A stretch of DNA of 64,000 bases from Pyropia yezoensis (lineage: Eukaryota > Rhodophyta > Bangiophyceae > Bangiales > Bangiaceae): contig CM020618.1 in assembly GCA_009829735.1 (NCBI GenBank), positions 15,668,568-15,732,567 on the forward strand, given 5' to 3'. Numbering within the stretch: the stretch's first letter is position 1; every line of letters begins with the position of its first letter. Shown here piece after piece: positions 22,433-42,396 of the stretch. The translations under genes were made by a program, and so were the position numbers. The notes beneath the pieces were generated by a model. That model saw only the letters and a list, made by a program, of their open reading frames with translations, was not told where the DNA came from and made no database searches.

Positions 22433-24186
22433 CTACGCACGCATGCTAGACTCCCCACCTCCACGACCATCGCCTTCACGTGGAGGCGAGTGGCGATACT
22501 CACGCCGGAAAAAATCACCACAAGTCGGTGGAGCCGACGGCTCCAATTCGGAGTCGTCACGACGCTCACGGCCACGGCTGTGACGACGACTGCGGCAACT
22601 AGCTTGCTTGGTATTGCGTGCAAGTTGGCAGCGCAGGCGACGGACCGACTCGGTCTCAGACGGGGTGGACGACTCCGACGCTGAGTAAGACAACTCGTCG
22701 TCAGATACAGAGGGAGAACGCCGCGAGTGGCGGCGACGACGACAATGAGGGGAGTACGCACGGCTCGCTATACGCTTGCCGCGCCCAAGTGGGGCCGTCA
22801 AAGGCATAACTGAGCCAATGCGAGCCAACTCGGTTGTCATGAACTCGGCGACCGACTCGCAACTCGCAGTCGCAACGACCGCACACGCGCGATCATCAAG
22901 TTAATGAGCTTTCGACACTTGAAGAGTGGCTGCTGATGCGGCCAGCCAGGAGATGGTACGCACCAACGTGGTGATCGCCATCTCGGAAGTCAAAGGAGCC
23001 GACGGCAATACCAACTTGCGGTAGACCGTAAGTAGCGTGGCCCCCAAGTTGGGAGACATAGGCGTGGACGACTCGACAACCACACCGATTGGGATGTCCC
23101 CGTGCGGCTGGAAAGGGACAGGCGGTGGAGGAGGGGGATGCCAAACTGGCTGAGACCGAGGGTAGCCGCGACCCCGAGTTGGGGCCTCCGCGGCTTCTTG
23201 CGCCCTGTATTCGTCATGGGTGGCGACACCCAAGACAGAGTTCGTGTCGGGGGGTGGTGCAGTGTTGCGCTCCACCCCCGCGGCGTCAGGGTAATGTTCA
23301 ATACCCAACCCCTCCTTGTGGACGACTCGTCCACCGTGAAGTTCGGGGCAAACCCACAGGGACTAGCGAAAAGCGCCTTGATCCTTTAGCACATTTGAGG
23401 GCCGGCGCAACTTGTGCTCAACACTCTCCCACTCGATGAGTCGGTGTAGCTTCAACATCTCCTTAATGAGATTGAGTTGGCTTGCCGAGCACCCCTCCGC
23501 AACTTGCTGAGGGGTGGGCTGCTCCAGTCCTTGAGCAAGGCGGGGTGGCAGATGCCAAATCATCTTGCGCACTTTCACGCACGCCACCCAGGTCGACATG
23601 ACCCCCAGTAGCCACAGTATTGCCGACATGGCGAACACCAGGTGGTCTGAGTTGGGCGACAGCATCACAGAACCAACGTGATCAATCAACAGCGGGAGTA
23701 ACGCGGAGAACCCATATGAGACCTCAACTTCAGGCCACCATTCGGGCTTCTTGGGATACATAAGCTCCTTGGTCGCCGTCGCTTGAAACGCAAACACAAG
23801 TTGAGCTGAGTTCACCGAGTAGGGACCTCGCCGGATGTCCTTCTCCATCCGAACGTCAAAGTGTTGAACGTGCAGGTCCGGCGTCCGAAGGTAGGGCGGG
23901 CGAGTTTCCACGGCGTCCCAACTGAAGGTTGGCTTGTCGACGGGGCCCTCGGTGGTGCCCCCATGCTCGAGCATGTTGTTGCACCGCTGCACGTCTTCGA
24001 CCTCCCCCTCGTCGAGGAAGGCGAAAGGGTCCGTCTTGAACCCCGCGGGTAAGCCGATCCAACGGGGAAACTTTTCCCGTAGGCGCTCGTAGGCACACTT
24101 CATGGACGACCCAACTCGGGCGAAACGCTCTGAAGCCCAACAGTCCGCATAGAGCGGCCAGGGCGAGTAAAACTACATACCAATCT
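22433..24186 (-). pseudogene. E2 antisense ORF (aORF), main part, two in-frame stops
   Basis: On the strand opposite to gag-pol, immediately downstream of E2 pol, one frame stays open from 24103 to 22433 (about 557 codons) with only two stops (TAG at 23365-23363, TAA at 22903-22901); all three pieces share the frame. The product has MKCAYERLREKFPRW, a motif YPKKPEWWPEVEVSYG, a hydrophobic stretch HLVFAMSAILWLLGVMSTWV, KEGLGIEHYPDAAGVE, and an Arg/Ser-rich C-terminus. It aligns by eye with the E3 aORF (YPVDPTWWSEYEVPRG; EEGLGHEELPYAPGVE) in the same relative position. The upstream stretch 24104-24186 is in another frame, so an indel lies near 24100, and an inverted LTR cuts the gene at 24187. 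The N-terminal piece continues at 42396-42217. Function unknown. Confidence 0.7.
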
Positions 24187-24827
24187 TGTGAGGAATCACC
24201 CACACTGGGGCAGCCCTCAACGTCCTCGCGATGGCGTCAGCGGCCCGTGACAGCCAAAAGCGCGACAGAGTGCGGGGAAGCGGGTGGAGGTGGTGACGGT
24301 GGTAAGTTTGGGGAAGCGGACAACGCAACGTCGGTGGTGATCGAGGGGGGTTCAAAGGGTTAAGGTCGTCTTTATTCTGTGTCTGTGGTTGCCCCTCCGA
24401 TCTCCCCCGGCGGCGCCGACACCCACGCACTATATACTCGCATCGGGGCAGCCGAGGTGCCCCAGAGCATGCGTTTCCCCGTCGCGCCGCCGGTAGGCAC
24501 AAGACGGCCCAAAAACAAAGCATGGCTCTCAAAACAAAGCATGGGCGGGCGTGCACATTGTGGGAGAGCAGGCCCAGTTTGCCCCAAACGAAGTTGTCCG
24601 GCGTGCAGCGCCTAGTGCGGCGCCCCAGCCGGCCCCAGACGCCAGTCGGTCCAAAGGTCCGAGAGGCGTGTAAGCACGGTTCGATCGAGTCGATCGAATC
24701 TGCCAGCCGGCTAGCCAGTCACATCGCTGCAATGCTGCAGCGAGGACATTCTTATAGACTTGCCAGCTGTGGCCGATGTGGCTCGTCATGGGTGCTGACG
24801 GTGGCGCCTTTCGACAGGCCATGATGG
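24187..24827 (-). repeat. E5: inverted LTR, 3' portion (left of E4)
   Basis: An inverted copy of the E4 LTR lacking its first ~210 bases, which are found at 42005-42216 on the other side of E4. The minus-strand end ...tcctcaca lies at 24187. No target duplication is visible between aatct (24182-24186) and caggt (42217-42221), so this may be a rearranged or recombined insertion rather than a simple solo LTR. Confidence 0.8.
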
Positions 24828-25675
24828 TGTGAGGATTTCGCCCCTAATCCCATGCGTCATACGTAGGGGAAAACATCTGGAACTTCTCCCTACAGATCCT
24901 GCCGAACGAACTCCTGGCAACATGGATCAATTCCTTGTATTGTGGGGCATGACGCGGTGTACCTGTCAGACTCACAATGGGTCAGCTGCTGTCTCACGGT
25001 GTCTGCTGGCCGCACGACAGCGGCCATCGAAAACGCATCATGGCCTGTCGAAAGGCGCAAACGTCAGCACCCATGACGAGCCTCATATGCCACAGCTGGC
25101 AAGTCCGTTAGAATGTCCTCTCTGCAGCATTGCAGCGATGTGACTGGCTAGCCGGCTGGCAGATTCGATCGACTCGATCGAACCGTGCTTACACGCCTCT
25201 CGGACCTTCGGCCCGCGTGGCGTCTGGGGCCGGCTGGGACGGCGCACTGGGCGCTGCACGCCGGACCCCTTCGTTTGTGTCAAACTGGGGCTGCACTCCA
25301 TCAGTGTGCTCGCCCGCCCATGCTCTGTTTTGAGAGCCATGCTTTGTTTTTGGGCCGTCTTGTGCCTACCGGCGTCGCGACGAGGAAACGCATGCTTCGG
25401 GGCACCTCGGCTGCCCCGATGCGAGTATAGAGTGCGTGGGTGTCGGCGCCACCGGGGGAGACCGGAGGGGCAACCACAGACACAGAATAAAGACGACCTT
25501 AACCCTTCGAATCCCCCTCGATCACCACCGACGTCGCGCCGTCTTCTTCCCCAGACCCACCACCGCCACTATCTCCATCCTCTTCCTCGCACCCTGTCGC
25601 TCTATTGGCTGGCACGGGTCGCCGACGCCATGATGAGTACGTTGAGGGCTGCCCAAGTGTGGGCGGTTCCTCACA
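24828..25675 (+). repeat. E4 5' LTR
   Basis: 848 bp, starting tgtgagg and ending ctcaca (TG...CA). Aligned by eye with the 3' LTR it shows about 45 substitutions and no length change; differences are concentrated in the first 180 bases. Confidence 0.9.
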
Positions 25676-27029
25676 TGTGGTAGCTTCAGATCGTTCGACT
25701 TTCTATCTGGCGGTGCCTTGCGATTCCCTCTTTTGTTTTGGCTCTCCCTGCGATTGTGTGCTTGTGTTGCTCCATGAGTTTGGCGTGCCACGGGCATTGT
25801 AATACGAACGTAGCGGGTTCCATACATCACACCGAACGAACAATTTCCTGACACAATCCTTGTTGTTTTTTTCACGAAATTTTTCTTTTGGTCAACCGAT
25901 TCTTGAATCCCAGTGAGATCCACATCAGATTCGGAATACTCATCCTCAGCACTGGCGTCCGGCCCGACATCCTCGGCGGCCTCGGCGCGCGATACGGGGT
26001 CCAAGTCACGTGGAACCCCCCCGGTGCGCACACCCTTGACGTTCTGCGCACCCCCGACGGCCCGCGCACCCCCGACGGCCCGCGCACCCCCGACGGCCCG
26101 TGGCGCCTTCACGACTCACGGTCCGTCGGCCCGCGGCCCCCCGTCGGCACGCGGCCCGCCGTCGGCACGCGGCTCCCCGCAGGCACACGCCCGCCCGAGA
26201 GCACACAACCCCCCGGCGGTCCACGTCCGCCTCCCCTGGGCGGGCCGGGACGCACCCAAGCCCCCCCTCTCGAGCAAGGGCAAGGGCCCTGCCACCTAGG
26301 ACACGGCAGCCCGGGTGAGCGGTCGCCTGTTACTGCTCTCCGAGAACCGGGGTGCCGCTACGCCGCCCCGCCGCCACCGGTGATTGGTCACTTTAAGCCA
26401 ACCACCGCGCGCGCGGTTGAGCAACGTGAATAACGCCAACGTGCCAAGAGTCACCGTGGGGTGCAAGGGAAGTTCCTTTGCAAACCGTGCGGTGTGCGGT
26501 GCAACAGCCTCACTGTACTATGTGATTACCGTGGATCCCGTCGCCACCGTTACACAATTATCCGCCCGGAAACCATTCCACGTTGCGAACCCTACGGTCG
26601 CGAATTTCAGTCGGTGGAACATTTAGAGCGGCACACGCGTGGCAAGGATCATCACCGCACCCTGACGCGCCGCACCAATTTAAACCTGTGGACACACCCC
26701 TTGATCTGGCCTAGGAGCCCGATTTTCCCCCCATTGATCCCCCCGCTTGGAAACCCGACACAGCCCGGCTCCGGCCCGTGCACGGACACTTCAGAACAAT
26801 CCGTTTGCGTGACTTCAACCGAAGTTCTTGTGCTTCTCGAAGTAGAGCTGCACATCCTTTGGAACGTTGCAGCAAATACCGCAGCACTTATTCCAATCGT
26901 GTTCACCACTACTGCTGCAGACAAACTCCTATCCCACATCTCCGAGATCTTCCTCGGGGTCCTTCCGAGACAAGTCTTGTGTATTCTGTGTTACAAGGTT
27001 GCTTTGCTTGGACTTGAACCCAAGACACC
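25676..27029 (+). other. E4 leader with tandem repeat and zinc-finger-like ORF
   Basis: 1.35 kb between LTR and gag. It includes three tandem copies of an 18-bp unit (gcgcacccccgacggccc) at 26046-26099 followed by imperfect repeats of ccgtcggcacgcgg. From 26434 the frame reads, without an ATG, a pair of degenerate matrin/U1-type C2H2 fingers: CKPCGVRCNSLTVLCDYRG...H (first zinc-binding His replaced by Tyr) and CEPYGREFQSVEHLERHTRGKDH (second Cys replaced by Tyr). Both replacements are single transitions away from the consensus ligand. The frame continues to 27138, overlapping the gag start in another frame. This may be an old coding exon of the element or captured host sequence. Confidence 0.4.
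25677..25695 (+). promoter_or_regulatory. E4 primer binding site (putative)
   Basis: Directly after the 5' LTR the sequence tggtagcttcagatcg begins with TGG, as expected for pairing with a tRNA 3' CCA end. The tRNA was not identified. Confidence 0.45.
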
Positions 27030-27899
27030 ATGGATGCACCAATCCCAGGGTGTGTCAACCCGGCCAATCCGGGCTTGGGCTCGAACGCACCGACCATGGA
27101 AGCGTGGACCCAGCTTACAGCTTTTGTCACGCAAATGAGCGAACAACTCGAGGCACACAAGATGGAATTAGCAAACGCTAAGCAGCAACTGTCCGAAGCC
27201 AAGGCCAGGGCCACTACTAGTGGCATGAAATCCGCGAGGCCGAACAAACCCGTGGCTCTCTCCGGTAAATCTCGCACGGTTGAAGCGTGGTGCTCGCATA
27301 TGGATCTCTATGTGCGACTGAGTGACTCCGACGATGCGTGCAGTATCGCTTGCACCTTCCTCGATGCTGAAGCGTTCGACTGGTGGAAGGTCTACAGCCA
27401 GACTACGGCTGTCCCGAACTGGGAATCCTTCCGTTCTGCGCTAATCCGACGCTTCAGTCCACTGAACAGAACACAAGCGGCACGAGACAAGCTGCACTCG
27501 TGGCGCAAAATGAAATACGTCGGAACGTTCAACAGGATGTTTCTGAGGGTCCTCTTGGACATCCCTGACATCACGGAAGCCCAGAAGATTGACCGCTACA
27601 CCCGAGGCTTGAAGCGGGACATCTGGCAGACTCTTTGTCTCAAGACCTGCTCAGATATTGAGTCTCTCATGACGGACGCTTTGCGCGTGGAGGCTGCCAA
27701 GGCTGGTGCCTCGACGCACCTCGGCAGCACATCTGCGAAGGCATCCACGACGGGTATCATTTCCATGGATATCTCCAGCATCAAATTCGAGAAACTCACG
27801 CCAGAAGAGCGTCAACGCTGCACGCGTGATGGTCTCTGCCTCCGCTGCCGTGAGAAAGGACATATGGCCAAGGACTGCCGAAAAGGCCAGCGGAACTGA
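27030..27899 (+). CDS. E4 Gag (capsid plus CCHC zinc knuckle)
   Basis: 289 residues from ATG 27030 (context caccATGG). Residues about 25-65 are a heptad-like coiled coil (QLTAFVTQMSEQLEAHKMELANAKQQL). A Ty3-type retrotransposon gag domain follows (FLDAEAFDWWKVYSQ, WESFRSALIRRFSP, DKLHSWRKM, YTRGLKRDIWQTL), and a zinc knuckle CLRCREKGHMAKDC lies seven residues before the stop. It assembles virus-like particles and binds the element RNA, by family knowledge. The frame is intact. Pol begins in a different frame (-1 relative to gag), but I see no slippery heptamer at the stop. Confidence 0.88.
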   Translation: MDAPIPGCVNPANPGLGSNAPTMEAWTQLTAFVTQMSEQLEAHKMELANAKQQLSEAKARATTSGMKSARPNKPVALSGKSRTVEAWCSHMDLYVRLSDSDDACSIACTFLDAEAFDWWKVYSQTTAVPNWESFRSALIRRFSPLNRTQAARDKLHSWRKMKYVGTFNRMFLRVLLDIPDITEAQKIDRYTRGLKRDIWQTLCLKTCSDIESLMTDALRVEAAKAGASTHLGSTSAKASTTGIISMDISSIKFEKLTPEERQRCTRDGLCLRCREKGHMAKDCRKGQRN

Positions 27900-27922
27900 A
27901 GCAGCTACCGTCATCAAACCCG

Positions 27923-30229
27923 GTGCCAGACGCTTCTTCGGTTCCTGAAAACATGTCGTCACCATTTGAAGGCCCGCGTCTCGGCCTTCTGCTTTCTACT
28001 GCCTCTGTCAATGGACATCTTGTTAAGGTGCTGTTTGAAGACGGATCTCCCATTAACGTCATATCAAGGCGCCTCGTGAATACCCTGAATGTGACCACAA
28101 AAGAAACGGACTTCGCGGCTAACATGCCCGATGGCCGCACCCACGTCCTCGCAGAGACCATTGTACCCTTAGAAATTCACAGCGGTCCATACCATGAACG
28201 CCTTCAGCTTGCTGTTTGCGACCTAAGTGCATACGACATCATCCTCGGAAAGAAACGGCGTGACGACAAGGACGTCAAAATCAACAACAAGAAGAACAAG
28301 ATCTCCTTCACGTTCAACCACAAGAACATCTCCATCACTGCCTCCCTCAAGGAGCCCCATGGCCTAATTAGGAGGCAACGCCTCGCCAAGGACCTTATCC
28401 AAAAATTTCCTGTCTTTGCCATCTACCTGCAAATCCGAAGATTCTTCCAGCACCTTTGACATCAATGCAATTAAAACGGGAACAGCTGAAGACAAGAATA
28501 ACGTCCAAGCGATTCTCAAGGAGTACGCCGACGGCTTCCCAGAAGAGCTTTCGGATGGACTTCCTCCTGAACGCAGTCACAAGTTTAGCGTCAAGCTTAC
28601 GGAGGACGCCCAAGCACGTCGCAGTGGCACTTATCGCCTATCTGAGTGGGAGCCCGATGAAATCAAGACACAACTTGCAACCCTCATACGAATGGGATTC
28701 ATCCATCCGAGCGCCTCACTGTGGGGCTCCTCTGTACTCTTTGCAGCGAAGAAGGTCGGTGGCTGGCGAATGTGCGTTGATTATCAAGCATTGAACAAGG
28801 CCATTATCAAGAACGCATACCCCTTACCACGAATTGACGACATATTCGACCAACTGCGAAAGGCCAAGTACTTCACGAAGATCGACCTCCGATCAGGCTA
28901 CCACCAGATCCGGCACGACCTTGATACTATCCCGCTGACGGCGTTCCTAACAAATTACGGGTTCTACGAGTTTACTGTGCTACCCTTTGGGCTATGCCCC
29001 CGCGGTCTTCATGAACCTAATGAATGACGTCTTCCGACCTTGTCTCTACGATTTCGTCTGTGTCTACCTCGACGACATCCTGGTCTACAGTGAAACTTAC
29101 GAAGACCACCTTAAGCACCTAAGGCAAGGTCTTGACAAGTTGCGAGAGCATAAGCTCTACGCCAAGCTCAGCAAATGCCAATTTGCTCGAACAACTGTGG
29201 ACTACCTCGGCCACATCATTTCCAACGAAGGGTTCTCTATGGAGGAATACAAGGTCCACGACATTAGATGATGGGCAACTCCACAGAGCAAAAAGGATGT
29301 GCAATCCTTCCTCGGCATGGTCAACTTCTCTCGTCGATTTATTAAGGGAATGGCATCCGTGGCTGCAGCACTCACGAGGCTCACTGGAAGCGTCGACTTT
29401 GAATGGAGCTCTGACGCCCAGAAAACTTTTGAGCAACTACAAACCCTGACGACAAGTGCACCAGTACTGAGGCCATTCGACAAGAGCTACCCAATCTTTG
29501 TGTCCGCAGATGCCAGTGGGTATGCTGTTGGCGCTGTCCTTGAACAAGACGACGGACAGGGACGACGCCCAGTGGCCTACTTCTCCTTGACGCTGAACAT
29601 CCACGAACAGCGCTACAGTATCAGGGAGGGCGAACTGCTCGCAGTAGTAAAAGCCATTCGACACTGGCGCTGCTATCTCCATGGAAGACCTTTCGGGGTG
29701 CACACCGACCATGAGTCCCTAAGGTACCTGAAAACCCAAGACAAGCTCAACGACCGCCAAGTCAAGTGGTTGAAGCTGTTGGAGCAATTCGATTTCAAGA
29801 TCATCCCCATCAAGGGCACATCCAACCCCGTAGCTGATGCCCTTTCGAGGCAACCACAAGACGCCCCCGACATGCACGCTCCCAGTCAAGATCTTCTTAG
29901 TCGCGTGCTAACCAAGACCACCGAATACCTACCCAAGAAAACTGAAATCAACAACCTCATGACCATAAGCCAAAGTGATCAAGACCTTGCCACCCTAGAC
30001 CAAGAGTACAACGCGGACCCCTAGTTTGCCGACCTAGTCAAGGACCCGGTATTTCCCTACCGGCTTCACATGAGGTTGTTGAAACCAGGTAACCGTGAGT
30101 GCATCCCCGTTGGTACTCTACGCCAGAGACTACTCCATGACTACCACGACATCCCAAGCCAAGGGCACATGGGAGTCAAGAAAACCATCAACGCTATTGC
30201 TTCCAAACACTACTGGAAGACGATGCGGA
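27923..30229 (+). pseudogene. E4 pol, 5' part: protease, RT, RNase H, start of integrase
   Basis: Protease region 27923-28459 has LFEDGSPINVIS where DTG/DSG is expected, so the catalytic Asp is replaced by Glu-Asp, and DIILGK near its end. RT 28416-29268 has [29 protein letters not shown] (then a frameshift near 28990) and an intact YLDDILVYS. RNase H follows (FVSADASGYAVGAVLEQ, YSIREGELLAVV, VHTDHESLRYL, PVADALSRQ). In-frame stops: TGA at 29269-29271 and TAG at 30022-30024. The integrase zinc domain starts (HDIPSQGHMGVKKTI, KHYWKTM) and is cut by E3 after 30229. Confidence 0.88.
30225..30229 (+). other. E3 target-site duplication, left copy
   Basis: gcgga, identical to 39959-39963. Removing E3 and one copy restores the E4 integrase reading frame across the junction (KHYWKTM continuing to KDVQRYV). 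Confidence 0.95.
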
Positions 30230-30920
30230 TGTAGGGACCCTATGGGCCCTACACGGGGGGGAACCTCGAAGAGATCGCGTCGTACCCCTGTGCCCACCTT
30301 CCTAGTGAGGAGGACGGGGCCGATTTGGCCCCTTGGGATTCTGCTGGCTTCCGATTGGTCCCCTCCTATGGAGATGGGACCGGGTCGCCATTGGTTCTGG
30401 AGCCCATGTTGGGATTTCCAGTGTATGGGAATTTCCCCTGACCCGAATTGGCCATTGGTCAATATTCCGGGATGGGATGCATTTGGGGTTTGGATTTTGA
30501 TTGTGTATTTTGCGTGATTGTGAGATTGGGGAGATCTTGAGTGTTGGCACTGATGTCCGGCGGGGCTCCTCTTCCCCGTATCTTGGAGGTTCCTGCCCCG
30601 CTGGCAGGGATGATCCGTGGGGAAGGGGGCCCTCCGGACATGTTGGAGGATTTTGATTGGCCCGCACGTGGCCCGGTGTGGAGGGTTGCTGGGTGCGGGT
30701 GAGAGAGGGTAAGAGTGTGCGTGGGGGTGCGCGTTGCTTCCCCCTTCGAAAAAAAACAGACTTGCGTGTGCTTGAACACTGTCGTCCTGGTCGCGGATCC
30801 CCGCGTGAACCAGCCAGGCGGTCGGCGGTTCGGTATCTCTCCTGTCTCCCCGCGTTCTTGGTGGGTTGTTTCCCTGTGTGTTCTGGGTGCTACGCGCCTA
30901 AGGTACGTGAAACCACTAGA
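30230..30920 (+). repeat. E3 5' LTR
   Basis: 691 bp, starts tgtaggg. It ends in actaga where the 3' LTR ends in actaca, so the terminal CA is mutated to GA. The first 35 bases contain a short inverted repeat (tagggaccc / gggccctac). Confidence 0.93.
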
Positions 30921-30940
30921 TTTGGTGGATCAGCGGGGGA
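30921..30940 (+). promoter_or_regulatory. E3 primer binding site (putative)
   Basis: tttggtggatcagcggggg follows the LTR directly. The TGG and the next bases are shared with E2 (16512 onward) and nearly with E1, marking a common tRNA primer for this lineage. The tRNA was not identified. Confidence 0.55.
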
Positions 30941-31035
30941 GGGACTAGGTTCCTTCTGGCCAAAGGGATCTACCCCTTCTTCGTACTCTTTCTGTGGTTG
31001 TGCTCTGCCTTCCCTAAGGGACCGCGGTTGTAGTA

Positions 31036-32757: not shown

Positions 32758-35700
32758 GGGGCGGTCCCCCTAGAGCTTCTCCCACTATGTCCCCTGATGC
32801 GGGGGGGCCTACGAGGATTTTGCGCCGCCCCCCAACGAATAAACCTGCATTATTGGCACTCCCTAAGGGGGTGAAACGGGGAAATGTTATTTGCGCGATT
32901 ATGCCTTCATCCAGCTTTCAGCTGGCTGTACATTTGTTTGCTACTGAAGGGTTAGAGCATGCTTTGCACGCTGTTCTGGATACCGGCAGCGGGCCCTCCC
33001 TGATTCGAAGCTCTTTGCTCCCGAAGGGAATGGGGCTCCAGCCCCTAGGGGAGCTGGAGAATATATTGTACTTTGACCTGAATGGGGGGTGGCTCCCCAT
33101 TCGAGGAACTTTACGCTTGGGAGTACAAGTGGGAGACCAAGTCTCGTACGTCTGCTGTGGAGTGATCGATAATATGGCGGTACCCATCATATTAGGAAAT
33201 TCATTTGGTGACACCGAGGTGAAAACCATCTCCTGTGAGGACCAGACGGTGACCCTCAAGACAGGGATGGTTGTCTCAATTCTCCGGGATATGGAGGATG
33301 TGGAAATGGGTCCCATTAAGTGGAACCCTGTGTGCGCTTGTCCACAGGTCAAGACCGCAAAACTCACCTTGTGTCACAAGTTGAGGCTGATGCCTGGGGT
33401 TATCTCGCACGTGAAGGTGCGAGGGAATTTCCAAGGCCACGGGATTATTTCCGGGCAGCCCCGTATCTCCTCCAAGTACGGCGTTCACGCGGCGAACGGC
33501 CCCGCGAAGCTGAACCGGGACGCCCCATACACCGTGCAAATGATGAATCCTACGCCAAGGATGGTCCGCCTTCCCGTTGGGACGGTTGAGGCGTCAATAT
33601 CATCCTATCAAGGACCTATATTGAGCGTCTCTCAAGAAGAGATGCAGAAGCTGAGCGAAGGTCCTGCGGTGAAGGAGGAGGGCGCCCAATCTGAGGTTGA
33701 CCTAGGAGAGGTCCCTGAAGCCCTACGTGGCCAGCTCTTGGAGCTGGTGGAGAAATACAAATCCCTATGGGATGGTACTCTTGGACTCATCAAGAATGCC
33801 GTGCACCGTATCCGCTTAAAACCCGGGGCAACCCCGGTAAGGCAGCATCCCTACAAGGCGGGGCACAAGCATCGCCAGTTGGAAGGGGAACAAGTGGAAC
33901 AGATGCGAAAACTCGAAGTTATTGAACCCGCCGAGGGTGAGTGGGCTAGTCCCGTAGTAATCGTCCCGAAGTCGGACGGCACGCCCCGGTTTTGTATTGA
34001 CTACCGGCGGCTCAACCTCGTCACGGTGAAGGACGCATATCCCATCCCAAGGATGGATGAATGTTTGGACTCCCTAGGGGAAGCCAGGGTGTTTAGCACC
34101 CTAGATTGTAACGCTGGATATTGGCAAATTCCTATTGCCCCGGAGGATAAGCACCTGACGGCATTTACGTGCCAGAAGGGCATATGGCAATGTACGCGGT
34201 TGCCCTTTGGGCTCTGCAACGCTCCAGCGACATTCCAGAGAGCTATGGATATTATCCTAGCTGGTGTGAAATGGCAGACCTGCCTCGTATACTTAGACGA
34301 TGTTATCGTCTTTTCTCGTTCTGACGAGGAGCACCTGCACCACTTGGAACACGCTTTGAGTCTCCTCAAAGAGAACGGCGTGTCGCTGAAGGCGTCCAAA
34401 TGCCACCTCTTTCAGAGGGAGGTCGAATATTTGGGACATGTCATCCGCCCAGGGCGGGTGGCCGTGAATGAGAAGAATACAAAAGCCCTGAAGGGGTTGC
34501 ATTATCCGCGTACACAAACGCAGCTGAAGAGCTTCTTGGGCATGTGCGGGGTATACCGAAGGTTTGTCCCGAATTTTGCCCGTATCGCCCGACCGCTGAA
34601 CGTGCTGACTAGTACGCACCTAGCCAAGGAACTAACTACTCCGACGGAGGAGACTCAAGCGGCGTTCGAAGAGCTTCGCGACTGCCTATTGAAGCCTCCA
34701 ATTTTGGCCATCCCTCGGGAGGGAGCCCATTATATTTTGGAGGTGGACGCCAGCTATGAGCAGCTGGGCTGTGCCTTGCTGCAACAACAGGAGGACGGGG
34801 AGTATCTCCCCGTCGGGTATTTTAGTCGGGGTCTATCCCCGGCCGAACGGAACTATTGTGCCACAGAAGTTGAGGCACTCGGAGTGGTATGGTCAGTGAC
34901 CTACCTGCGTTCCTTCTTGGAAGGATCCGAATTTCTGGTGCGCTGTGACCATTCTGCCCTCACTTCTGTGATGACAAGCAATAGCCCTAATCGACGCCTT
35001 ACAGGCTGGAGGCTCCGCTTGGCGGAATTCTCGTACCAAATTAAGCACAAACCCGGGAAGGACCACAAAGTGGCTGATGCCCTGTCTCGCCTTCCTACGG
35101 ATGGCTTGGATAGGACACCTTTGGATGACCAGATACCCGTATTGGCGGTGGCCCGGTCAGCAAAGGCCCTCACAGACCGAAGCCATAAGGGCCTCGGGAA
35201 GATTACGCTTCGAGAGCTCATTGAGGCCCAGGCCTCTGATGAATTTTGCAAGCAACGCCGGATGGAGGGGCCTTTCATCCCTCCAAAGGATGCCCGTTGG
35301 CAGCGGAACGCCTTCTTCTTTGAAGATGACGATGGTGTACTGTGTCGCCACTCCCTACTCGGGGGGAATGACCAATGGGTCATCCCGGAACCGCTGCGGA
35401 AGCGTGTTCTGGAAATGTATCATGACGCGCCTACGGCGGGTCATCCGGGTTCCCGGAAGATGTACAGGACGATGCGCCAGTATTTTTATTGGCCCGCCCT
35501 AGTGGCGGATGTATACGGGTATGTCTATAACTGCCCAGGATGTACCAAGAACCGTATATCGGATAGGAGGCAAAAGTCTCCTATGAAGCTATTCCCCGCC
35601 CATGAGCCATTCCAATCGGTGGCCATGGATTTGCTGGGTCCGCTTCCGAAGACGGAGAATGGGCACACCATGCTCCTGGTGATGTGCGACCGGTTCACCA

Positions 35701-36764
35701 AACTGGTGAGGGCGGTCCCACTATCGGACACGACTGCCATTGGGGTAGCCTCTGCATTTATCGATTATTGGGTGGCTGCCGATGGCATTCCGGATTCCAC
35801 TCTGAAGGACAACGGACCTCAGTTTGCGGCCGTCTACTTCCAAGGAGTCATGGGGCTCCTAGGGATCTCCACAAACTATACGACTCCGTATCACCCACAG
35901 ACCAACGGTCAAGCGGAACGGTATAACAAGATAATCATGCGGCAGCTACGGACGTATTCGTCCGAGCACCCACGGGAATGGGATCGCTATGTGTCCCTCC
36001 TGACGACCGCATATAATATGCAGGTTCATTCGAGCACTGGGGTAGCCCCAATGACTTTTGTGAGCCCTCGGCGCTTGCAAGCGTCGAATATTGAGCGTTT
36101 ACCTAAGGTACGCTCTGTGGACACGGAAGAGCCTGACGCCGATACGGCGGCGGTTCAATATGTGAAGGAAATGCGCCACCTAATTTCCCGGATTAGGAAG
36201 AATTTAGATAAGGCCCAAGAGGCCTACAAACGCGTTTATGACGCGGGTATTCAACAAGACAAAGAGACTATGTCTCAAGGAGATTGGGTTTATGTGAAAT
36301 CCTATGCTAAGGGGCGGACGAAAATGTCTTCAAGGACGAAGGGACCGTATATGGTGCTACGCACAGACGGGCAACGGTTTCTTATTGAAACACCTACGGG
36401 AGAACAGACCCAGAGTAAAGACAATATCATACGAGCTCCCCCGCCTAAGGCAGGGGATCCAGTATGGATGCGGGCACGGGAAGCCCGGGACGCGTTCAAC
36501 GAATGCCCCGAGGAATCCCCGGGGAAGGACGTGTTCGAACAGATTGTCGGCCACCAGTGGGTGGAGGACGAAGACGGGAAGCCCGACTTGGACTTCCGGG
36601 TGCGGTGGTTTGGCCACGGCCCCGAAGGGGACACATGGCACCCCAAGAAGGGTGTGCCACGGGCTGCTCTGCTAAAATATGCCCGAAGGCACAAGCTCCC
36701 CATCAAGGGACGGGACCGAGGGTCCCGACTGTTCCCCCAAGGGGAAACGGAGGAAGAGGAGTGA
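32733..36764 (+). CDS. E3 Pol: protease, RT, RNase H, integrase, chromodomain
   Basis: Open from 32733, with first ATG at 32787 (1325 residues from there). Protease: DTGSG at residues 65-69. RT: WASPVVIVPKSDGTPRF, TLDCNAGYWQIP, LPFGLCNAPATFQRAMD, and YLDD at about 502-505. RNase H: LEVDASYEQLG, TEVEALGVVW, VRCDHSALT, VADALSR. Integrase: an HHCC zinc domain ending NCPGC, then AMDLLGP, KDNGPQF and GQAERYN, which form a perfect D,D-35-E spacing between the last two residues. The C-terminus (~1250-1310) has a chromodomain-like segment (WVEDEDGKPDLDFRVRWFGHG...DTWHPKKG). All catalytic residues are present and no stop interrupts it, unlike E1, E2 and E4. Pol is probably made as a Gag-Pol fusion by -1 frameshifting. 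Confidence 0.95.
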   Translation, partial: FLIFGKRVRGGPPRASPTMSPDAGGPTRILRRPPTNKPALLALPKGVKRGNVICAIMPSSSFQLAVHLFATEGLEHALHAVLDTGSGPSLIRSSLLPKGMGLQPLGELENILYFDLNGGWLPIRGTLRLGVQVGDQVSYVCCGVIDNMAVPIILGNSFGDTEVKTISCEDQTVTLKTGMVVSILRDMEDVEMGPIKWNPVCACPQVKTAKLTLCHKLRLMPGVISHVKVRGNFQGHGIISGQPRISSKYGVHAANGPAKLNRDAPYTVQMMNPTPRMVRLPVGTVEASISSYQGPILSVSQEEMQKLSEGPAVKEEGAQSEVDLGEVPEALRGQLLELVEKYKSLWDGTLGLIKNAVHRIRLKPGATPVRQHPYKAGHKHRQLEGEQVEQMRKLEVIEPAEGEWASPVVIVPKSDGTPRFCIDYRRLNLVTVKDAYPIPRMDECLDSLGEARVFSTLDCNAGYWQIPIAPEDKHLTAFTCQKGIWQCTRLPFGLCNAPATFQRAMDIILAGVKWQTCLVYLDDVIVFSRSDEEHLHHLEHALSLLKENGVSLKASKCHLFQREVEYLGHVIRPGRVAVNEKNTKALKGLHYPRTQTQLKSFLGMCGVYRRFVPNFARIARPLNVLTSTHLAKELTTPTEETQAAFEELRDCLLKPPILAIPREGAHYILEVDASYEQLGCALLQQQEDGEYLPVGYFSRGLSPAERNYCATEVEALGVVWSVTYLRSFLEGSEFLVRCDHSALTSVMTSNSPNRRLTGWRLRLAEFSYQIKHKPGKDHKVADALSRLPTDGLDRTPLDDQIPVLAVARSAKALTDRSHKGLGKITLRELIEAQASDEFCKQRRMEGPFIPPKDARWQRNAFFFEDDDGVLCRHSLLGGNDQWVIPEPLRKRVLEMYHDAPTAGHPGSRKMYRTMRQYFYWPALVADVYGYVYNCPGCTKNRISDRRQKSPMKLFPAHEPFQSVAMDLLGPLPKTENGHTMLLVMCDRFTKLVRAVPLSDTTAIGVASAFIDYWVAADGIPDSTLKDNGPQFAAVYFQGVMGLLGISTNYTTPYHPQTNGQAERYNKIIMRQLRTYSSEHPREWDRYVSLLTTAYNMQVHSSTGVAPMTFVSPRRLQASNIERLPKVRSVDTEEPDADTAAVQYVKEMRHLISRIRKNLDKAQEAYKRVYDAGIQQDKETMSQGDWVYVKSYAKGRTKMSSRTKGPYMVLRTDGQRFLIETPTGEQTQSKDNIIRAPPPKAGDPVWMRAREARDAFNECPEESPGKDVFEQIVGHQWVEDEDGKPDLDFRVRWFGHGPEGDTWHPKKGVPRAALLKYARRHKLPIKGRDRGSRLFPQGETEEEE
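32745..32771 (+). promoter_or_regulatory. -1 programmed frameshift signal between E3 gag and pol
   Basis: In the gag frame the sequence reads tcG GGA AAC GCG TAA. GGGAAAC fits the X-XXY-YYZ slippery heptamer in the correct phase, one codon before the stop. After a 5-base spacer, AGGGG (32757-32761) can pair with CCCCT (32767-32771) around a 5-base loop. Pol lies in the -1 frame and is open from 32733, so slippage at 32745-32751 would yield Gag-Pol. Internal initiation at ATG 32787 is the alternative. Confidence 0.72.
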
Positions 36765-36907
36765 TAATCAGCCCCCAGACAAAGGGGGGGGAATACGGCG
36801 GAGCCAGTCCCTATGGGAAAGGTGGAAACCAACGCAAAACTATCCCTCATCCCTCCTTCTCGTACGGAAGAAAGAAAACACACAACACCCCTCGTCGAGG
36901 GGGAAGA

Positions 36908-38500
36908 CTAATACCCCCACTTCTCGTCAGAATGGGAACCAGTGAAGTAACGAGGGCCATGCCCCCCTCCACCGTAAGCTGCCTCGGCGGCACCACGGAG
37001 CGAAAGACTGGGGACCTGCAACATGGTATCCATGTTGGCCCTCCCCAGCTCCCGATCCAGGCGCTCTACGAGCGCCTCCCGAGAAAGAAGTGGCAAAGCC
37101 ACCGGGGGGATGTCTCCCCAGTCTCCATGAGTGGCGACTATCGCCGCCAGATCGTTGGCCAGGCCCGTATAAGCCCGACATAACCCCATCACAAGGGAGT
37201 CCTCGACGGCATCCCGAAGAGCAGGGGGGGGCGGGTCAAAGACCTGCCCCAAAGCGGCCACAGTAGTACCTGGGATGGGACGGGGCAACGCCAAGGGCGA
37301 GCCCCCCCAGCGGAACGGAGCTACAGGCTCTGGCACAAGAACACGGCGCCCACCCGGCGCCCGGATCTCCTCTCCCGGAGAAAAGCTCCGTGGCGGAGGC
37401 GGTCTAAAGGACCTACCGCTGGATGAGCCTGCGGACCCACGCTCTCCGCAACTCCCCTTAGGGGAGTTTGGCAGCAAGCAGGGACCACACCGCTCCTGGC
37501 CAAAACCAGGGAGGCGGGGCCCCTCCTCCTCCATGCGGGTCTCTGGGGCAGGGACCCGAGTAAGGGACTCCACGCCAGGAGCATAAGGGAGCTCCTCATG
37601 CCCCAACCCCTCCTCCAAGAGGAGGGCACCCTCGGAGGTCAAAGACCGCGAGCAACGGACCAGCAAACGGGGCCGAAAGGGAAGGCCCAGATACGAGGGT
37701 AACGCCTTACGATGTACCTCCTCAAGGAGGAGAAGAAGAGCCCGAAGGAATGCCGCCCGGTCAGGGTGGTCAGGGCAAAGGACGTCAATCGGACTCTCCT
37801 TGAGAACCCGGAGCAGAGGAAGAGGGATAAGCCAGGCATGTCCGTAGAACAGGCCGGATCACAACAGTACATCAGCCACCTCGACGAGCCAGCAGGCGTT
37901 CAGGGTAGCCCTGGCCGCGGAGTCTGGTCCGTCGGCCATGAGCCGACTACCCCGAAGAGCAACAAGGTTGCCAATCCGCGCGGCCATACCGCGAGGCACC
38001 TCGTACTCACTCCACCAGGTGGGATCAACCGGGTAGTACTTCAGCCGGTCCTCGGGGGTGAAGCCCTCGACCTCCCGCTGCTCCGCACAGGCAAATATGC
38101 CATGCCGCCGACGATGCCGGGGCTCTGCCAGCGCTCGGCGCAGGAAGTATCCTCGTCGGCGCTCCCCAATGGAAGGTAGCGGCCCCGGGTAGTAGGCCAG
38201 GTCAAAGACCGGCATAGCTCCCTCCGGCAGAGAAGGGCGGTCACACGCCTCCTCCAGCTGCCGGGCCACCTTCCAGTCATCCGCAAAGCGGAGGACAGGG
38301 TAGTCGGCGGGAGTACCAATGGGGACCTCATATAGGTCCGGGAAGAGATGACGGAACGTCGTCCAAACGCCCGCCATACGGCGGGGGCTGACATGAACCC
38401 AGCGGTCGGTGACCACACAGGGAAGAGGGTGTGCATAAGGCCACTCCTTCGAAAAAGGGGTTACCTCCCCGAAGGGGCCAGGCCCCTCCGTGTCCGCCAC
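36908..38500 (-). CDS. E3 antisense ORF (aORF), one in-frame stop
   Basis: Between pol and the 3' LTR, on the opposite strand, one frame is open from 38500 to 36908 (531 codons) except for a single TGA at 37861-37859. There is no ATG at the 5' end of this frame. The first internal ATG is 38377 (MAGVWTTFRHLF), and a plausible N-terminus (MASPSGSSDHNATMGDGG) starts at 38706 in the neighbouring frame, so either an indel, splicing or frameshifting links them. Recognisable segments are RFADDWKVARQLEEA, YPVDPTWWSEYEVPRG, LLEEGLGHEELPYAPGVE and REALVERLDRELGRANM. The E2 aORF (24103-22433) shares the YP-x2-P-x-WW-x-E-x-EV-x2-G motif and the EGLG...GVE block in the same order. No known domain is recognised. 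Confidence 0.65.
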
Positions 38501-39252
38501 GGTGGTACAGGTACCTCGGCCGGCGAAGCCGGACCGGCATCACCCCGGCCGCTCCCGGCGTCGTCCATAAGGACGTCGCCCGGAGCAGCGGGTGGCATCC
38601 GCGTGGCCGAAAGGCCACGGGGGGAGGAAGGAACCGAAAGGGAAGCGGGTCCGCCGCCGTCACCCATGGTGGCGTTGTGGTCCGATGACCCCGACGGGGA
38701 AGCCATGACTGGCCGCTCTCCACCGGAGACGACGGCGGGGGAAAACGTGGATGCTGCCCCCAACCTTAAGGTGAGGAAGAGGGGGATGCACGCTGGCCGG
38801 TAGAAGCGAGAGGTGACGAAGGAGGGGAGAAGACGGTGGCCGCCCTCGCGGCGAGCACCGGTTGTAAACCCCCCTTCCCGGGTCCACCCCAAACGGGTGA
38901 GTACCCCTCGCTCCCGGCTAAGCCAGGAGAGCCTGCCCCTCACGTCCCCACCCCGTGCGGGCAGGGCCGTGAGAGGAGACGGGCTCCATCCTTGTTGCGT
39001 CCCCCACCCCTCGGGTGGTGGTTTGGAGGGGGTGTCTCCACGTATCCCGCCTGTCACGCGACGATAGTGGCCACGATTGTCTCCCCAAGGGAGGAAACCA
39101 TTGGGCCGATCTGACCCAGTGTCATCCACACCCCCATGGGGTGGGTACACTCGGCGTTGGGGACAGCATGCTGCCAAGTGGCATTGCCTCCGCCGCCCGT
39201 TAGGCACCCGGATATTTTTGCCCCGGTGTCTGGGTCGCGGGTCGCAACCCCC

Positions 39253-39267
39253 TGGAGGTGTGGGAAG
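39253..39267 (+). promoter_or_regulatory. E3 polypurine tract
   Basis: tggaggtgtgggaag directly abuts the 3' LTR start (tgtaggg at 39268), the expected place for plus-strand priming. Confidence 0.6.
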
Positions 39268-39958
39268 TGTAGGGACCCTATGGGCCCTACACGTGGGGGG
39301 ACCTCGAAGAGATCGCGTCGTACCCCTGTGCCCACCTTCCTAGTGAGGAGGACGGGGCCGATTTGGCCCCTTGGGATTCTGCTGGCTTCCGATTGGTCCC
39401 CTCCTATGGAGATGGGACCGGGTCGCCATTGGTTCTGGAGCCCATGTTGGGATTTCCAGTGTATGGGAATTTCCCCTGACCCGAATTGGCCATTGGTCAA
39501 TATTCCGGGATGGGATGCATTTGGGGTTTGGATTTTGATTGTGTATTTTGCGTGATTGTGAGATTGGGGAGATCTTGAGTGTTGGCACTGATGTCCGGCG
39601 GGGCTCCTCTTCCCCGTATCTTGGAGGTTCCTGCCCCGCTGGCAGGGATGATCCGTGGGGAAGGGGGCCCTCCGGACATGTTGGAGGATTTTGATTGGCC
39701 CGCACGTGGCCCGGTGTGGAGGGTTGCTGGGTGCGGGTGAGAGAGGGTAAGAGTGTGCGTGGGGGTGCGCGTTGCTTCCCCCTTCGAAAAAAAACAGACT
39801 TGCGTGTGCTTGAACACTGTCGTCCTGGTCGCGGATCCCCGCGTGAACCAGCCAGGCGGTCGGCGGTTCGGTATCTCTCCTGTCTCCCCACGTTCTTGGT
39901 GGGTTGTTTCCCTGTGTGTTCTGGGTGCTACGCGCCTAAGGTACGTAAAACCACTACA
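39268..39958 (+). repeat. E3 3' LTR
   Basis: 691 bp, TG...CA. Aligned by eye to 30230-30920 it differs at about five positions: two in the G run near the start, one at cacgttc/cgcgttc, and two in the last 15 bases. Followed by gcgga (39959-39963), the target duplication. Confidence 0.95.
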
Positions 39959-39963
39959 GCGGA

Positions 39964-41146
39964 AGGACGTTCAAAGATACGTACAATCATGTGATTTGTG
40001 CCAGCGAAACAAGGCTGGCACCCATTCACCTTTGGGTCACCTCAAACCATTAGATCCACCGAACCAACGATGGGCAAGTGTCTCCATGGACTTTATAACC
40101 CCTCTTCCACTGACCCCAAGGGGCCACTATGGCATTTACGTCACTGTAGACCGACTGTCGAGGATGATTCGACTAGCACCAACGAAGCCCGACTGTACTG
40201 CACCAGTCGTAGCGCAACTCTACCATGATCACGTCTACCGTCATCACGGTCTACCATCCGACGTCGTCTGCAACCGAGACCGTATCTTCTTCTCTAACTT
40301 CTGGCAGTCGCTCACCAAAATTCTCTCAAGGTCAAGATCAAGGCATCTTCGGCCTATCATCCCCAGACGGACGGACAAACCGAGATCATGAACAAGAAGA
40401 TTGAAGAAATCTTGCGAAATTTCGTGACCAATCACCAGGGTGATTGGGACCTCTTCCTTGTTGCTGCAGAAATAGCTTACAGCCGGTCACCCAATGCGGT
40501 CACGACGTCCTTCCCATTCTTCCTGAACTATGGATTTGAACCAAGGACGGTACCTGTGGACATCCTCGACATCAACTAATCGAAACGACCAGCAGTCTCA
40601 GATTGGCTAAGCAGTCTGCAAGAAGCTCAGGAGACTGCCATTACCGCCATCAAGAAGGCAAATGACACACGCTCGGCGTACGCTAACCGCCGACGCCGAC
40701 CATGTACGATCGCTGTCGACGATCTCGTGCTCCTAAGCACCAAGAACCTTACCCCGGACGCCTTCCAAGGCGCTCGCAAGTTGATGCCCAAGTTTTCGGG
40801 ACCATGCCAAGTCACTGAAAGCATCAACGATGTTATGTTCCGACTGGATCTTCCTCAAGCAGTCCTTGCTCAAAACGTACACAATGCCTTTCGCGCCAGT
40901 CTACTGAAGCCGTACAGCGCTGATCCGTATGGTCGACATCCTCCCGCTCCACCTCCAGCAGCATTTCCGGACGGTTCGGTTGAGTACGAAGTGGACTCCA
41001 TTATACGGTCACGAAAACGCCGTGGACGACTGCAGTACCTGGTCAAGTGGAAAGGCTGCGATGTCAGTGAGAACACCTGGCTAACCAAGCAAGACCTCGA
41101 TAACGCACCTGAGGTTCTCGACGCTTTCCTTCGACGCACATCCTGA
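39964..41146 (+). pseudogene. E4 pol, 3' part: integrase and chromodomain
   Basis: Continues the E4 integrase after E3: zinc domain cysteines (SCDLCQRNK), first catalytic Asp (VSMDFITPLP), and the second catalytic region reading VVCNRDRIF where SDRD is typical, so Asp appears as Asn. A frameshift follows near 40325, then GQTEIMNKKIEEIL (catalytic Glu present). A TAA stop at 40577-40579 interrupts the frame. The C-terminus is a textbook chromodomain: YEVDSIIRSRKRRGRLQYLVKWKGCDVSENTW at about 40988-41085, with the aromatic cage positions visible (Y, W, W). It ends with TGA at 41144. Confidence 0.9.
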
Positions 41147-41156
41147 GGGGGGGAGG
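41145..41156 (+). promoter_or_regulatory. E4 polypurine tract
   Basis: gaggggggggagg-type purine run overlapping the pol stop codon and abutting the 3' LTR at 41157. Confidence 0.7.
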
Positions 41157-42004
41157 TGTAAGGATTTCCCCCCTAATCCCTTTCCTCATATCTAAGGGAT
41201 AATATCTGGGACGTCTCCTCACAGATCCTGCCGAACCAACTCCTGGCAACATGGATCAATTCCTTGTATTGTGCGGCATGACGCGGTGTACCTTCCTGAC
41301 TCACGATGAGTCAGCCGCTGTCTCACGGTGTCTGCTGGCCGCACGACAGCGGCCATCGAAAACGCATCATGGCCTGTCGAAAGGCGCCACCGTCAGCACC
41401 CATGACGAGCCACATATGCCACAGCTGGCGAGTCCGTTAGAATGTCCTCTCTGCAGCATTGCAGCGATGTGACTGGCTAGCCGGCTGGCAGATTCGATCG
41501 ACTCGATCGAACCGTGCTTACACGCCTCTCGGACCTTCGGACCGCGTGGCGTCTGGGGCCGGCTGGGACGGCGCACTGGGCGCTGCACGCCGGACCCCTT
41601 CGTTTGTGTCAAACTAGGGCTGCACTCCATCAGTGTGCACGCCCGCCCATGCTCTGTTTTGAGAGCCATGCTTTGTTTTTGGGCCGTCTTGTGCCTACCG
41701 GCGTCGCGACGAGGAAACGCATGCTTTGGGAAGCCTCGGGTGCCGCGACGCGAGTATATAGTGCGTGGGTGTCGGCGCCACCGGGGGAGACCGGAGGGGC
41801 AACCACAGACACAGAATAAAGACGACCTTAACCCTTCGAATCCCCCTCGATCACCACCGACGTCGCGCCGTCTTCTTCCCCAGACCCACCACCGCCACTA
41901 TCTCCATCCTCTTCCCCGCACCCTGTCGCCCTATTGGCTGGCACGGGTCGCCGACACCATCAAGAGTACGTTGAGGGCTGCCCAAGCGTGGGTGGCTCCT
42001 CACA
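41157..42004 (+). repeat. E4 3' LTR
   Basis: 848 bp, starts tgtaagg, ends ctcaca. Same length as the 5' LTR with about 45 substitutions by eye. Confidence 0.9.
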
Positions 42005-42216
42005 GATTGGCTGTCGATGGCTGCTGTCGTGCGGCCGGCAGACACCGTGAGACAGCGGCTGACTCACCTTGAGCCTGAAAGGTACACCGCGTCATGCCCC
42101 ACAATATAAGGAGTTGGTCCATGTTGCCAGGAGTTGGTTCGGCAGGATCTGTAAGGAGAGGTCCCAGATATTATCTATTGGGTATGAGGCATGGAATTAG
42201 GGGAGAAATTGTTACA
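42005..42216 (-). repeat. E5: inverted LTR, 5' portion (right of E4)
   Basis: The reverse complement matches the first ~210 bases of the E4 LTR (tgtaacaatttctcccctaa against tgtgaggatttcgcccctaa) and completes the inverted LTR at 24187-24827. The join is exactly at E4's target duplication (gatgg/gattg). Confidence 0.85.
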
Positions 42217-42396
42217 CAGGTCCTTCCTTGCGGTGACGGGGCCTACCTCGGGGGGAGAGCCCGCCGCTGAATTGTCGTCGGGCAACGCAGGCATCCCGTT
42301 CCCCTGGGCAATCGCGGAGCTCCCGCCGAAAGTTCCGGCGGGTGCTACAACGCGGCGCGTGTCCTCCATACGGTCGTCAACGCAGTCAGACTCCAT
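42217..42396 (-). pseudogene. E2 aORF, probable N-terminal piece
   Basis: From ATG 42396 the minus strand reads MESDCVDDRMEDTRRVVAPAG ... PPEVGPVTARKDL and runs into the E5 LTR at 42216. It lies where the 5' end of the E2 antisense ORF should be, between E2's interrupted aORF body and its 3' LTR. It resembles the E3 N-terminal candidate (Asp/Gly/Ser-rich start) only in style. The assignment rests mainly on position. Confidence 0.4.

What the first reader, a model, noticed from the sequence alone, without database searches (positions are those of the whole stretch)
22433..42396. A conserved antisense gene between pol and the 3' LTR of red-algal-type chromoviruses (E2 and E3)
Seen: in E3 the strand opposite to gag-pol keeps one frame open for 531 codons (38500-36908) with a single TGA; in E2 the same location holds one minus-strand frame of about 557 codons (24103-22433) with two stops, although E2's own gag-pol is badly broken. 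The two translations align by eye: YP-x2-P-x-WW-x-E-x-EV-x2-G, then a hydrophobic block, then EGLG-x-E-x3-P-x-A-x-GVE, then a shared helical C-terminal region. Known: some plant Tat-lineage elements carry antisense ORFs at this position, and HTLV-1 expresses an antisense gene from its 3' LTR. Inference: this lineage has a real antisense gene under selection, of a protein family I cannot name.
Basis: partly seen in the sequence, partly recalled or inferred. Interest (0 to 1): 0.87.

Follow-up and report, generated by a model that had tools for sequence, protein, structure and literature searches.

The report
Antisense gene in nori retrotransposons
Jumping genes in a nori-type red alga carry an extra protein-coding gene on the strand opposite to their other genes; it has been preserved by natural selection in many copies, matches no protein family that we could find, and may help the element control its own activity.

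Summary
The genome matches Pyropia yezoensis by scaffold sizes. Between pol and the 3' LTR, Ty3/Gypsy elements E2 and E3 carry a gene antisense to gag-pol, tail-to-tail with pol. E3's copy has a frame break near 38.5 kb and one in-frame TGA; E2's is split by a nested insertion. Of 27 E3-type copies with long matches, 12 keep an antisense frame open; the longest sense-strand run is 210 codons. In another E2-type family, 68 of 68 scored (best-first) matches encode all 647 residues without a stop; of 14 copies closest to E2 only 2 are open. In eight pairs the antisense frame has dN/dS 0.10-0.31; other frames 1.1-3.1, except a stop-ridden wobble shadow (0.23-0.47). Constraint (0.12) approaches that of pol (0.08). 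E2 and E3 products are homologous (hhalign 97.6%). Relatives occur in a third family beside pol, a fourth without recognised pol, and Pyropia vietnamensis. No Pfam, TRP28 or PDB sequence match. Antisense accessory ORFs are known in plant and fungal Gypsy elements; this is an apparently unrelated protein family in a red alga. Function (nuclear regulator?) is inferred; transcription is untested.

The parts
30230..30918 (+). E3 5' LTR (689 nt aligned; begins TG; GCGGA seen at both flanks, a likely 5-bp target-site duplication)
   Evidence: 99.4% to 39268-39956; flanks read
31036..32757 (+). E3 gag, 573 aa
   Evidence: open frame; no Pfam match at E 0.001; called gag from its place and a zinc-knuckle-like CX2CX4HX4C seen by eye (recalled motif)
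32787..36764 (+). E3 pol, 1325 aa: RT, RNase H, integrase, weak chromodomain
   Evidence: Pfam
36908..38500 (-). main part of the E3 antisense gene (531 codons, one internal TGA), tail-to-tail with pol, 143 bp from the pol stop
38464..38706 (-). N-terminal part of the E3 antisense gene (ATG aligned with that of related copies at 38706), in another frame than the main part
   Evidence: tblastn of P0001; start located
39268..39956 (+). E3 3' LTR; an antisense promoter in or near it is inferred, not shown
16047..16511 (+). E2 5' LTR
   Evidence: 93.3% to 42768-43233
17467..22234 (+). E2 gag-pol remains, broken
   Evidence: tblastn with E3 gag and pol; Pfam on 20146-21504
22433..24184 (-). larger, C-terminal part of the E2 antisense gene, two internal stops
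42199..42396 (-). N-terminal part of the E2 antisense gene, separated by the nested insertion
   Evidence: tblastn of P0007 matches 42402-42199; frame read
42768..43233 (+). E2 3' LTR
24826..42004 (+). E4, a nested Ty3/Gypsy element with a clear chromodomain and no antisense-family match (pol stop at 41146, LTR from 41155); it interrupts E2's antisense gene and holds E3
   Evidence: LTRs 24826-25675 and 41155-42004, 94.7%; Chromo 59.3 bits; no antisense-gene match there

Best explanation
SHOWN BY SEQUENCE COMPARISON: E2, E3 and related Ty3/Gypsy elements of this red alga carry a protein-coding gene antisense to gag-pol, between pol and the 3' LTR and tail-to-tail with pol. In the copies with long open frames it encodes about 600-650 residues: a low-complexity N-terminus, a conserved core of about 300 residues (Y-P-x2-P-x-W-W-x3-E-V-P-x-G-[MF], then G-S, W-L-x-E-V, G-x2-W-x2-P in most members), a proline/glycine-rich linker, and a second conserved segment. 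Selection has kept the protein sequence while several element families diverged. PREDICTED: the core and the second segment are mostly helical. INFERRED (about 0.4): an antisense promoter in or near the 3' LTR makes a separate mRNA, and the product is a nuclear accessory protein that acts on its own element (transcription control, protection from silencing, or guiding its nucleic acid), as proposed for plant Retand/Grande antisense ORFs and as HBZ does in HTLV-1. The stated confidence is for the gene and its selection, not for the inferred mechanism.
For: Six-frame dN/dS in 8 pairs: antisense frame 0.10-0.31; every other frame 1.08-3.14 except the sense frame whose third positions face the antisense third positions (0.23-0.47, with 22-32 stop codons per pair). 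Bootstrap: antisense gene E3 x L026 0.121 (0.092-0.158); pol of the same pair 0.077 (0.059-0.099). 12 of 27 E3-type copies with matches of at least 1400 nt keep an antisense frame open over at least 85%; antisense runs reach 528 codons against at most 210 on the sense strand. 68 of 68 scored matches to P0025 cover all 647 residues without stops (best-first list out of 3665 candidates). E2 and E3 proteins are homologous: BLASTP 2e-13, hhalign 97.6%, 4.6e-12. A third family has pol 66% and 50% identical to E3's in two stretches and an antisense protein 32% identical. Twelve fetched loci were searched for pol; in the 9 where it was found, the pol match nearest to the antisense gene faces it. Relatives in protein collections: P0014-P0020 (organisms not given, and P0014 looks the same as locus L020's product) and P0026, 'hypothetical protein MMPV_001527' of Pyropia vietnamensis, 55% to the third family. 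For a nuclear role: the E2-type C-terminus has a basic, RS-rich stretch (11 R/K in 20); no strongly hydrophobic segment.
Against: Neither window copy is intact, and no transcript or protein evidence was available. Only 2 of 14 copies closest to E2 keep the frame. The E3-type proteins lack the basic C-terminal tail, so the nuclear inference does not cover all members. No recognised domain supports any molecular function. The structure models are of low and medium confidence (mean pLDDT 50 and 61). Family D has the core but no match to E3 gag or pol in the 4.5 kb fetched, so the link to pol may not be universal. L057 also holds a pol-like piece on the same strand as its antisense gene, further off (5229-6299); I take it for another element.
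Confidence: 0.9

Rival explanations
1. Chance open frame in GC-rich DNA, or a shadow of constraint on the sense strand or on DNA-level signals.
For: Region is 64.5% GC; 15 of 500 shuffles reach E3's own 316-codon run. One sense frame also shows dN/dS under 0.5 in all 8 pairs.
Against: No shuffle reached 500 codons, the longest was 437, while 9 of 27 E3-type copies have runs of 504-528. The sense frame in question holds 22-32 stop codons per pair and is weaker than the antisense frame in all 8 pairs. Six collection proteins are 31-39% identical to the E3-type product (P0015-P0020).
Confidence: 0.02
2. The antisense RNA rather than the protein is what matters: convergent transcription makes double-stranded RNA that silences or tunes the element.
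For: Tail-to-tail layout of pol and the antisense gene. A review names antisense RNA as a possible regulator (PMC7264820, passages).
Against: An RNA role predicts no difference between synonymous and non-synonymous sites; the observed dN/dS is 0.10-0.31. RNA effects could exist in addition.
Confidence: 0.05
3. The product is a structural or envelope-like protein (second capsid-type protein, or membrane/movement protein as proposed for sense env-like ORFs of plant elements).
For: Position between pol and the 3' LTR is that of env; the core is predicted helical, and one helix is moderately hydrophobic (highest 19-residue Kyte-Doolittle mean 1.2-1.9 in 7 proteins).
Against: No anchor-like hydrophobic segment in the 7 proteins scanned (no dedicated predictor was run); no similarity to E3 gag by hhalign (0.3%); antisense placement would uncouple it from the genomic RNA (inference).
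Confidence: 0.15
4. A captured host gene, or a separate mobile gene (family D type) that the LTR elements acquired.
For: Family D is a relative of 344 aa; 22 of the 117 matches listed are 85-100% identical over nearly the full length (query included), and the one locus read has no match to E3 gag or pol in 4.5 kb.
Against: No cellular homologue was identified, though the surroundings of most listed matches were not examined. In the tree family D joins the E2 type on a long branch (87/95 support, with a long-branch warning) rather than standing apart from the LTR-borne proteins.
Confidence: 0.2

Closest known systems
Retand/Tat-lineage Gypsy elements of flowering plants with antisense ORFs (Grande gene23, RIRE2, Retand; TRP28 domain) - PMC11963269 and PMC7264820 (passages read)
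   Same: Ty3/Gypsy; antisense ORFs between pol and 3' LTR, kept in many copies and across species; function unknown; nuclear localisation reported for Grande; regulatory role proposed.
   Different: Those are described as non-chromoviruses; 97% of clusters encode TRP28 (PF04195), which the paper says appears only in flowering plants. Here PF04195 matched none of the proteins scanned and nothing in the genome (a search without a positive control); the protein is about 600 aa and shows no recognisable relation; the host is a red alga.
Boty-type Gypsy elements of Botrytis cinerea with the antisense gene brtn (cited in PMC7264820 and PMC8365987, passages; original paper not read)
   Same: Antisense additional gene in a Gypsy element outside plants.
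   Different: Fungal; the sequence of brtn was not available here, so homology is untested.
HTLV-1 HBZ and related antisense genes of deltaretroviruses (via the introduction of PMC11963269, passages)
   Same: Antisense gene read from the 3' side of a provirus; nuclear regulator of the element.
   Different: HBZ is a bZIP protein (recalled); no bZIP domain was matched here.
Sense env-like ORFs of plant LTR elements (PMC7264820, passages)
   Same: Position between pol and 3' LTR.
   Different: Orientation opposite; no strongly hydrophobic segment here.

Membership tests
Gypsy elements with conserved antisense ORF between pol and 3' LTR (aORF-3R) | Open frame antisense to gag-pol between pol and 3' LTR | tested here: met
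   E3 and E2 in the window; of 12 fetched loci searched, the 9 where pol was found have the nearest pol match facing the antisense gene
Gypsy elements with conserved antisense ORF between pol and 3' LTR (aORF-3R) | Kept in many copies of the element | tested here: met
   44 DNA match rows to the E3 gene and 42 to the E2 gene, some rows being pieces of one copy; 12 of 27 and 2 of 14 open; 68 of 68 scored matches intact in another E2-type family. The share of elements lacking the gene was not measured
Gypsy elements with conserved antisense ORF between pol and 3' LTR (aORF-3R) | Present in more than one species | tested here: inconclusive
   A related protein is recorded from P. vietnamensis, but whether it lies antisense in an LTR element there was not examined
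Gypsy elements with conserved antisense ORF between pol and 3' LTR (aORF-3R) | Antisense transcription | not testable with these tools
   no RNA data on hand
Retand lineage | TRP28 (PF04195) domain in the antisense product | tested here: not met
   no PF04195 match in the proteins scanned with Pfam (6, 13 and 6 proteins, overlapping sets); none in the genome at E <= 1 (where no control genome exceeded the cut-off, so that search has no positive control)
Retand lineage | RT of the non-chromovirus Retand clade | not tested
   no RT tree was built
Chromoviruses | Chromodomain at the C-terminus of integrase | tested here: inconclusive
   E3 19.9 bits and L055 23.0 bits, both under the cut-off of 25.1; the E2 piece has no match; nested E4 scores 59.3
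HBZ-type antisense regulators | bZIP domain | tested here: not met
   no bZIP family in the Pfam scans of the antisense proteins
HBZ-type antisense regulators | Transcript starting in the 3' LTR | not testable with these tools
   no RNA data on hand
Env-like proteins | Signal peptide and transmembrane segment | tested here: inconclusive
   highest 19-residue hydropathy 1.2-1.9 in 7 proteins; no dedicated predictor was run

The most novel reading that the evidence does not exclude
The antisense protein is an old, self-interested module of its own: a family of mobile-element regulators of Bangiales red algae that predates the present element families, is exchanged between them by recombination, and in family D spreads without gag or pol. 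It would act in trans as an anti-silencing or DNA-targeting factor, with divergent alleles kept in elements whose LTRs are nearly identical.
Probability: 0.2. Interest if true: 0.85.

Novelty: new variant of a known kind. Interest (0 to 1): 0.68.

Why it matters
Antisense genes in LTR elements have been described in flowering plants, fungi and deltaretroviruses, and in the LTR elements their function is mostly unknown (PMC7264820, PMC11963269, passages). An apparently separate protein family at the same place in red-algal elements suggests that evolution has put an antisense accessory gene there more than once. It also offers a family with dozens of uninterrupted, near-identical copies. The six-frame substitution test indicates that the protein, not only the antisense RNA, is under selection; the term 'purifying selection' does not occur in one of those papers, nor 'selection' in the other. 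In practice, at least one such gene stands in the public record as a host 'hypothetical protein' (MMPV_001527), so gene counts in Bangiales genomes, where LTR elements predominate among repeats in P. yezoensis (PMC7423979, passages), may be inflated.

Tried and rejected
Rejected: chance frame and sense-strand shadow; similarity of the product to E3 gag; TRP28/PF04195; Pfam and PDB sequence relatives. The scattered Pfam and PDB hits at E 0.15-1.8 (RNA_pol_L, MFS_MOT1, BRI3BP, MIX1) were taken as chance.

Limits: dN/dS is Nei-Gojobori pairwise, without a tree or a model of two overlapping strands; the antisense dS of 1.0-1.2 is near saturation, and the comparison of the third family with the E3 type (dN/dS 0.35 at dS 2.3) is saturated and not relied on. 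Copy counts from the genome search are lower bounds and listed best-first, so 68 of 68 intact is a biased sample. In one search copies with matches under 1400 nt were dropped (5 of 32 E3-type and 1 of 15 E2-type loci); L002-L008 were left out as second fetches of L009-L015; not every place listed was fetched. One search counts a copy as open if any of the three antisense frames is open over 85% of the match.
Full report
Setting. The window is part of a 107.5 Mb genome whose three large contigs (43.6, 34.3, 29.4 Mb) equal the scaffold sizes given for Pyropia yezoensis (PMC7423979, passages). The genome itself is unnamed here, so this identification is an inference. Four Ty3/Gypsy elements lie in or reach into the window. 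E2 has LTRs at 16047-16511 and 42768-43233 (93.3%). E4 has LTRs at 24826-25675 and 41155-42004 (94.7%) and is nested in E2. E3 has LTRs at 30230-30918 and 39268-39956 (99.4%) and is nested in E4. E1 is a relative of E2 (82% DNA identity over 3.9 kb) in the opposite direction, running off the left end. E3 has an open gag (573 aa) and pol (1325 aa) with RT, RNase H and integrase.

Observation. Related copies show that the gene starts further upstream. In E3 the matching ATG is at 38706, in a frame that meets the main one near 38.5 kb. In E2 the N-terminal part lies at about 42396-42199, beyond the nested insertion. E2's antisense gene was interrupted by E4's family: the repeat coordinates read as a solo LTR in the opposite direction (24180-24826 and 42010-42217) with E4 inside it (inference).

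Is it a gene? The strongest test compares copies. In 8 pairs covering E3-type and E2-type families at 73-88% DNA identity, the antisense frame has dN/dS 0.10, 0.13, 0.15, 0.20, 0.25, 0.26, 0.26 and 0.31. The two other antisense frames and two of the sense frames lie between 1.08 and 3.14. The remaining sense frame, whose third positions face the antisense third positions, lies at 0.23-0.47 but holds 22-32 stop codons per pair. With bootstrap, the gene in E3 x L026 has 0.121 (0.092-0.158) and pol of the same pair 0.077 (0.059-0.099). Between close copies dN/dS is higher (antisense gene 0.39 for E3 x L011 and 0.28 for L054 x L057; pol 0.41 for E3 x L010). That is expected if inserted copies decay while the replicating lineage is under selection.

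Of 27 E3-type copies with matches of at least 1400 nt, 12 keep one antisense frame open over 85% or more; the longest sense-strand run in any of them is 210 codons. Of 14 fetched E2-like copies, 2 do. A more uniform E2-type family is far better kept: 68 of 68 scored matches cover all 647 residues without a stop, many with the same score (best-first, out of 3665 first-look candidates). Shuffling E3's own region gave no run of 500 codons in 500 trials.

One family of proteins. E2 and E3 products match by BLASTP (25%, E 2e-13) and by profile comparison (probability 97.6%, E 4.6e-12); the same method gives 0.3% against E3 gag. A third family (L055) has pol 66% and 50% identical to E3's in two stretches, and an antisense protein 32% identical. 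Six proteins from public collections, organisms not given, are 31-39% identical to the E3 type (P0015-P0020); P0014 (76%) looks the same as the product of locus L020 and may be this species. A P. vietnamensis protein named only 'hypothetical protein MMPV_001527' is 55% identical to the third family over 308 residues; its surroundings were not seen. A fourth family (D, 344 aa; 22 of 117 listed matches at 85-100% over nearly the full length) has the core, but the one locus read has no match to E3 gag or pol in 4.5 kb, about 2.2 kb of it on the side where pol would lie. The tree recovers the groups; the deep joins involve long branches and are uncertain.

Layout. Twelve fetched loci were searched for pol and it was found in 9. 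In each of these the pol match nearest to the antisense gene faces it tail-to-tail. L057 also has a pol-like piece on the other strand further away, taken for another element. The gap is 143 bp in E3. E4, the element with the clearest chromodomain (59.3 bits), shows no such gene: its pol stop (41146) is followed within 10 bases by the LTR, and no antisense-family match falls there.

What the protein may be. No Pfam match better than E 0.15 and no PDB sequence match better than E 0.62 was found; fold searches are told under Tried and rejected. The AlphaFold2 models have mean pLDDT 50 and 61 and show a mostly helical core, and in the first a C-terminal helical segment. No strongly hydrophobic segment is present in 7 proteins scanned; the E2 type ends in a basic, RS-rich tail with 11 R/K in 20 residues. 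I infer a nuclear accessory protein acting on the element, expressed from a promoter in or near the 3' LTR, at a probability of about 0.4. An envelope or structural role is less likely (0.15). An RNA-only role does not explain the codon pattern.

Known background. Antisense ORFs between pol and the 3' LTR are described in Retand-lineage elements of flowering plants, where 97% of clusters encode TRP28 (PMC11963269, passages). They are also described in Grande, RIRE2, PvRetro13 and the fungal Boty (PMC7264820, passages). PF04195 gives no match in the proteins scanned or in this genome (no control genome exceeded the cut-off, so there is no positive control). The layout is thus of a known kind, while the protein family and host are new as far as these searches go. 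Ten paper searches listed no report from red algae, and most papers of subscription journals are not in that library.

An extra oddity. Between E3 and the related subfamily the LTR is 91-98% identical in 100-base steps (E3 against L026), pol 86% in the 758 bases compared, but the antisense gene only about 76% (L026 and L028). Its dS is 1.0-1.2 against 0.57-0.61 in pol. Either the LTRs have been homogenised by recombination or the antisense genes are older alleles that were swapped in. The first 75 codons have much lower dS (0.31) in the one E3-type pair examined; the E2-type pair did not show this (0.71).

Noticed in passing
L056 2230-3261 (minus) and further places listed: A 344-aa relative of the antisense protein core in a repeat family (22 of 117 listed matches at 85-100%, query included); the one locus read has no match to E3 gag or pol in 4.5 kb. 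Nature of this repeat unknown.
   Followed up: partly
window 39268-39956 and 36911-38706 against L026/L028: The LTRs of E3 and L026 are 91-98% identical in 100-base steps while the antisense genes differ at about a quarter of positions (dS near 1), which suggests recombination between elements.
   Followed up: partly
window 38464-38706 (first about 75 codons of the E3-type gene): Synonymous divergence is about a quarter of that in the rest of the gene in the pair L018 x L026; possibly an overlapping DNA or RNA signal, or a recombination block. The E2-type pair did not show it.
   Followed up: partly
window 24180-24826 and 42010-42217: These read as two parts of one solo LTR of E4's own family, in opposite orientation, with E4 inserted inside it; the whole sits within E2's antisense gene.
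   Followed up: partly
places on contigs C1-C3: 68 listed copies of one E2-type antisense protein, 98-100% identical, all 647 aa and uninterrupted: apparently a recent burst (DNA identity and LTR ages not examined).
   Followed up: no
P0026: A relative is annotated as a hypothetical protein (MMPV_001527) in Pyropia vietnamensis; Bangiales gene sets may contain more such element genes.
   Followed up: no
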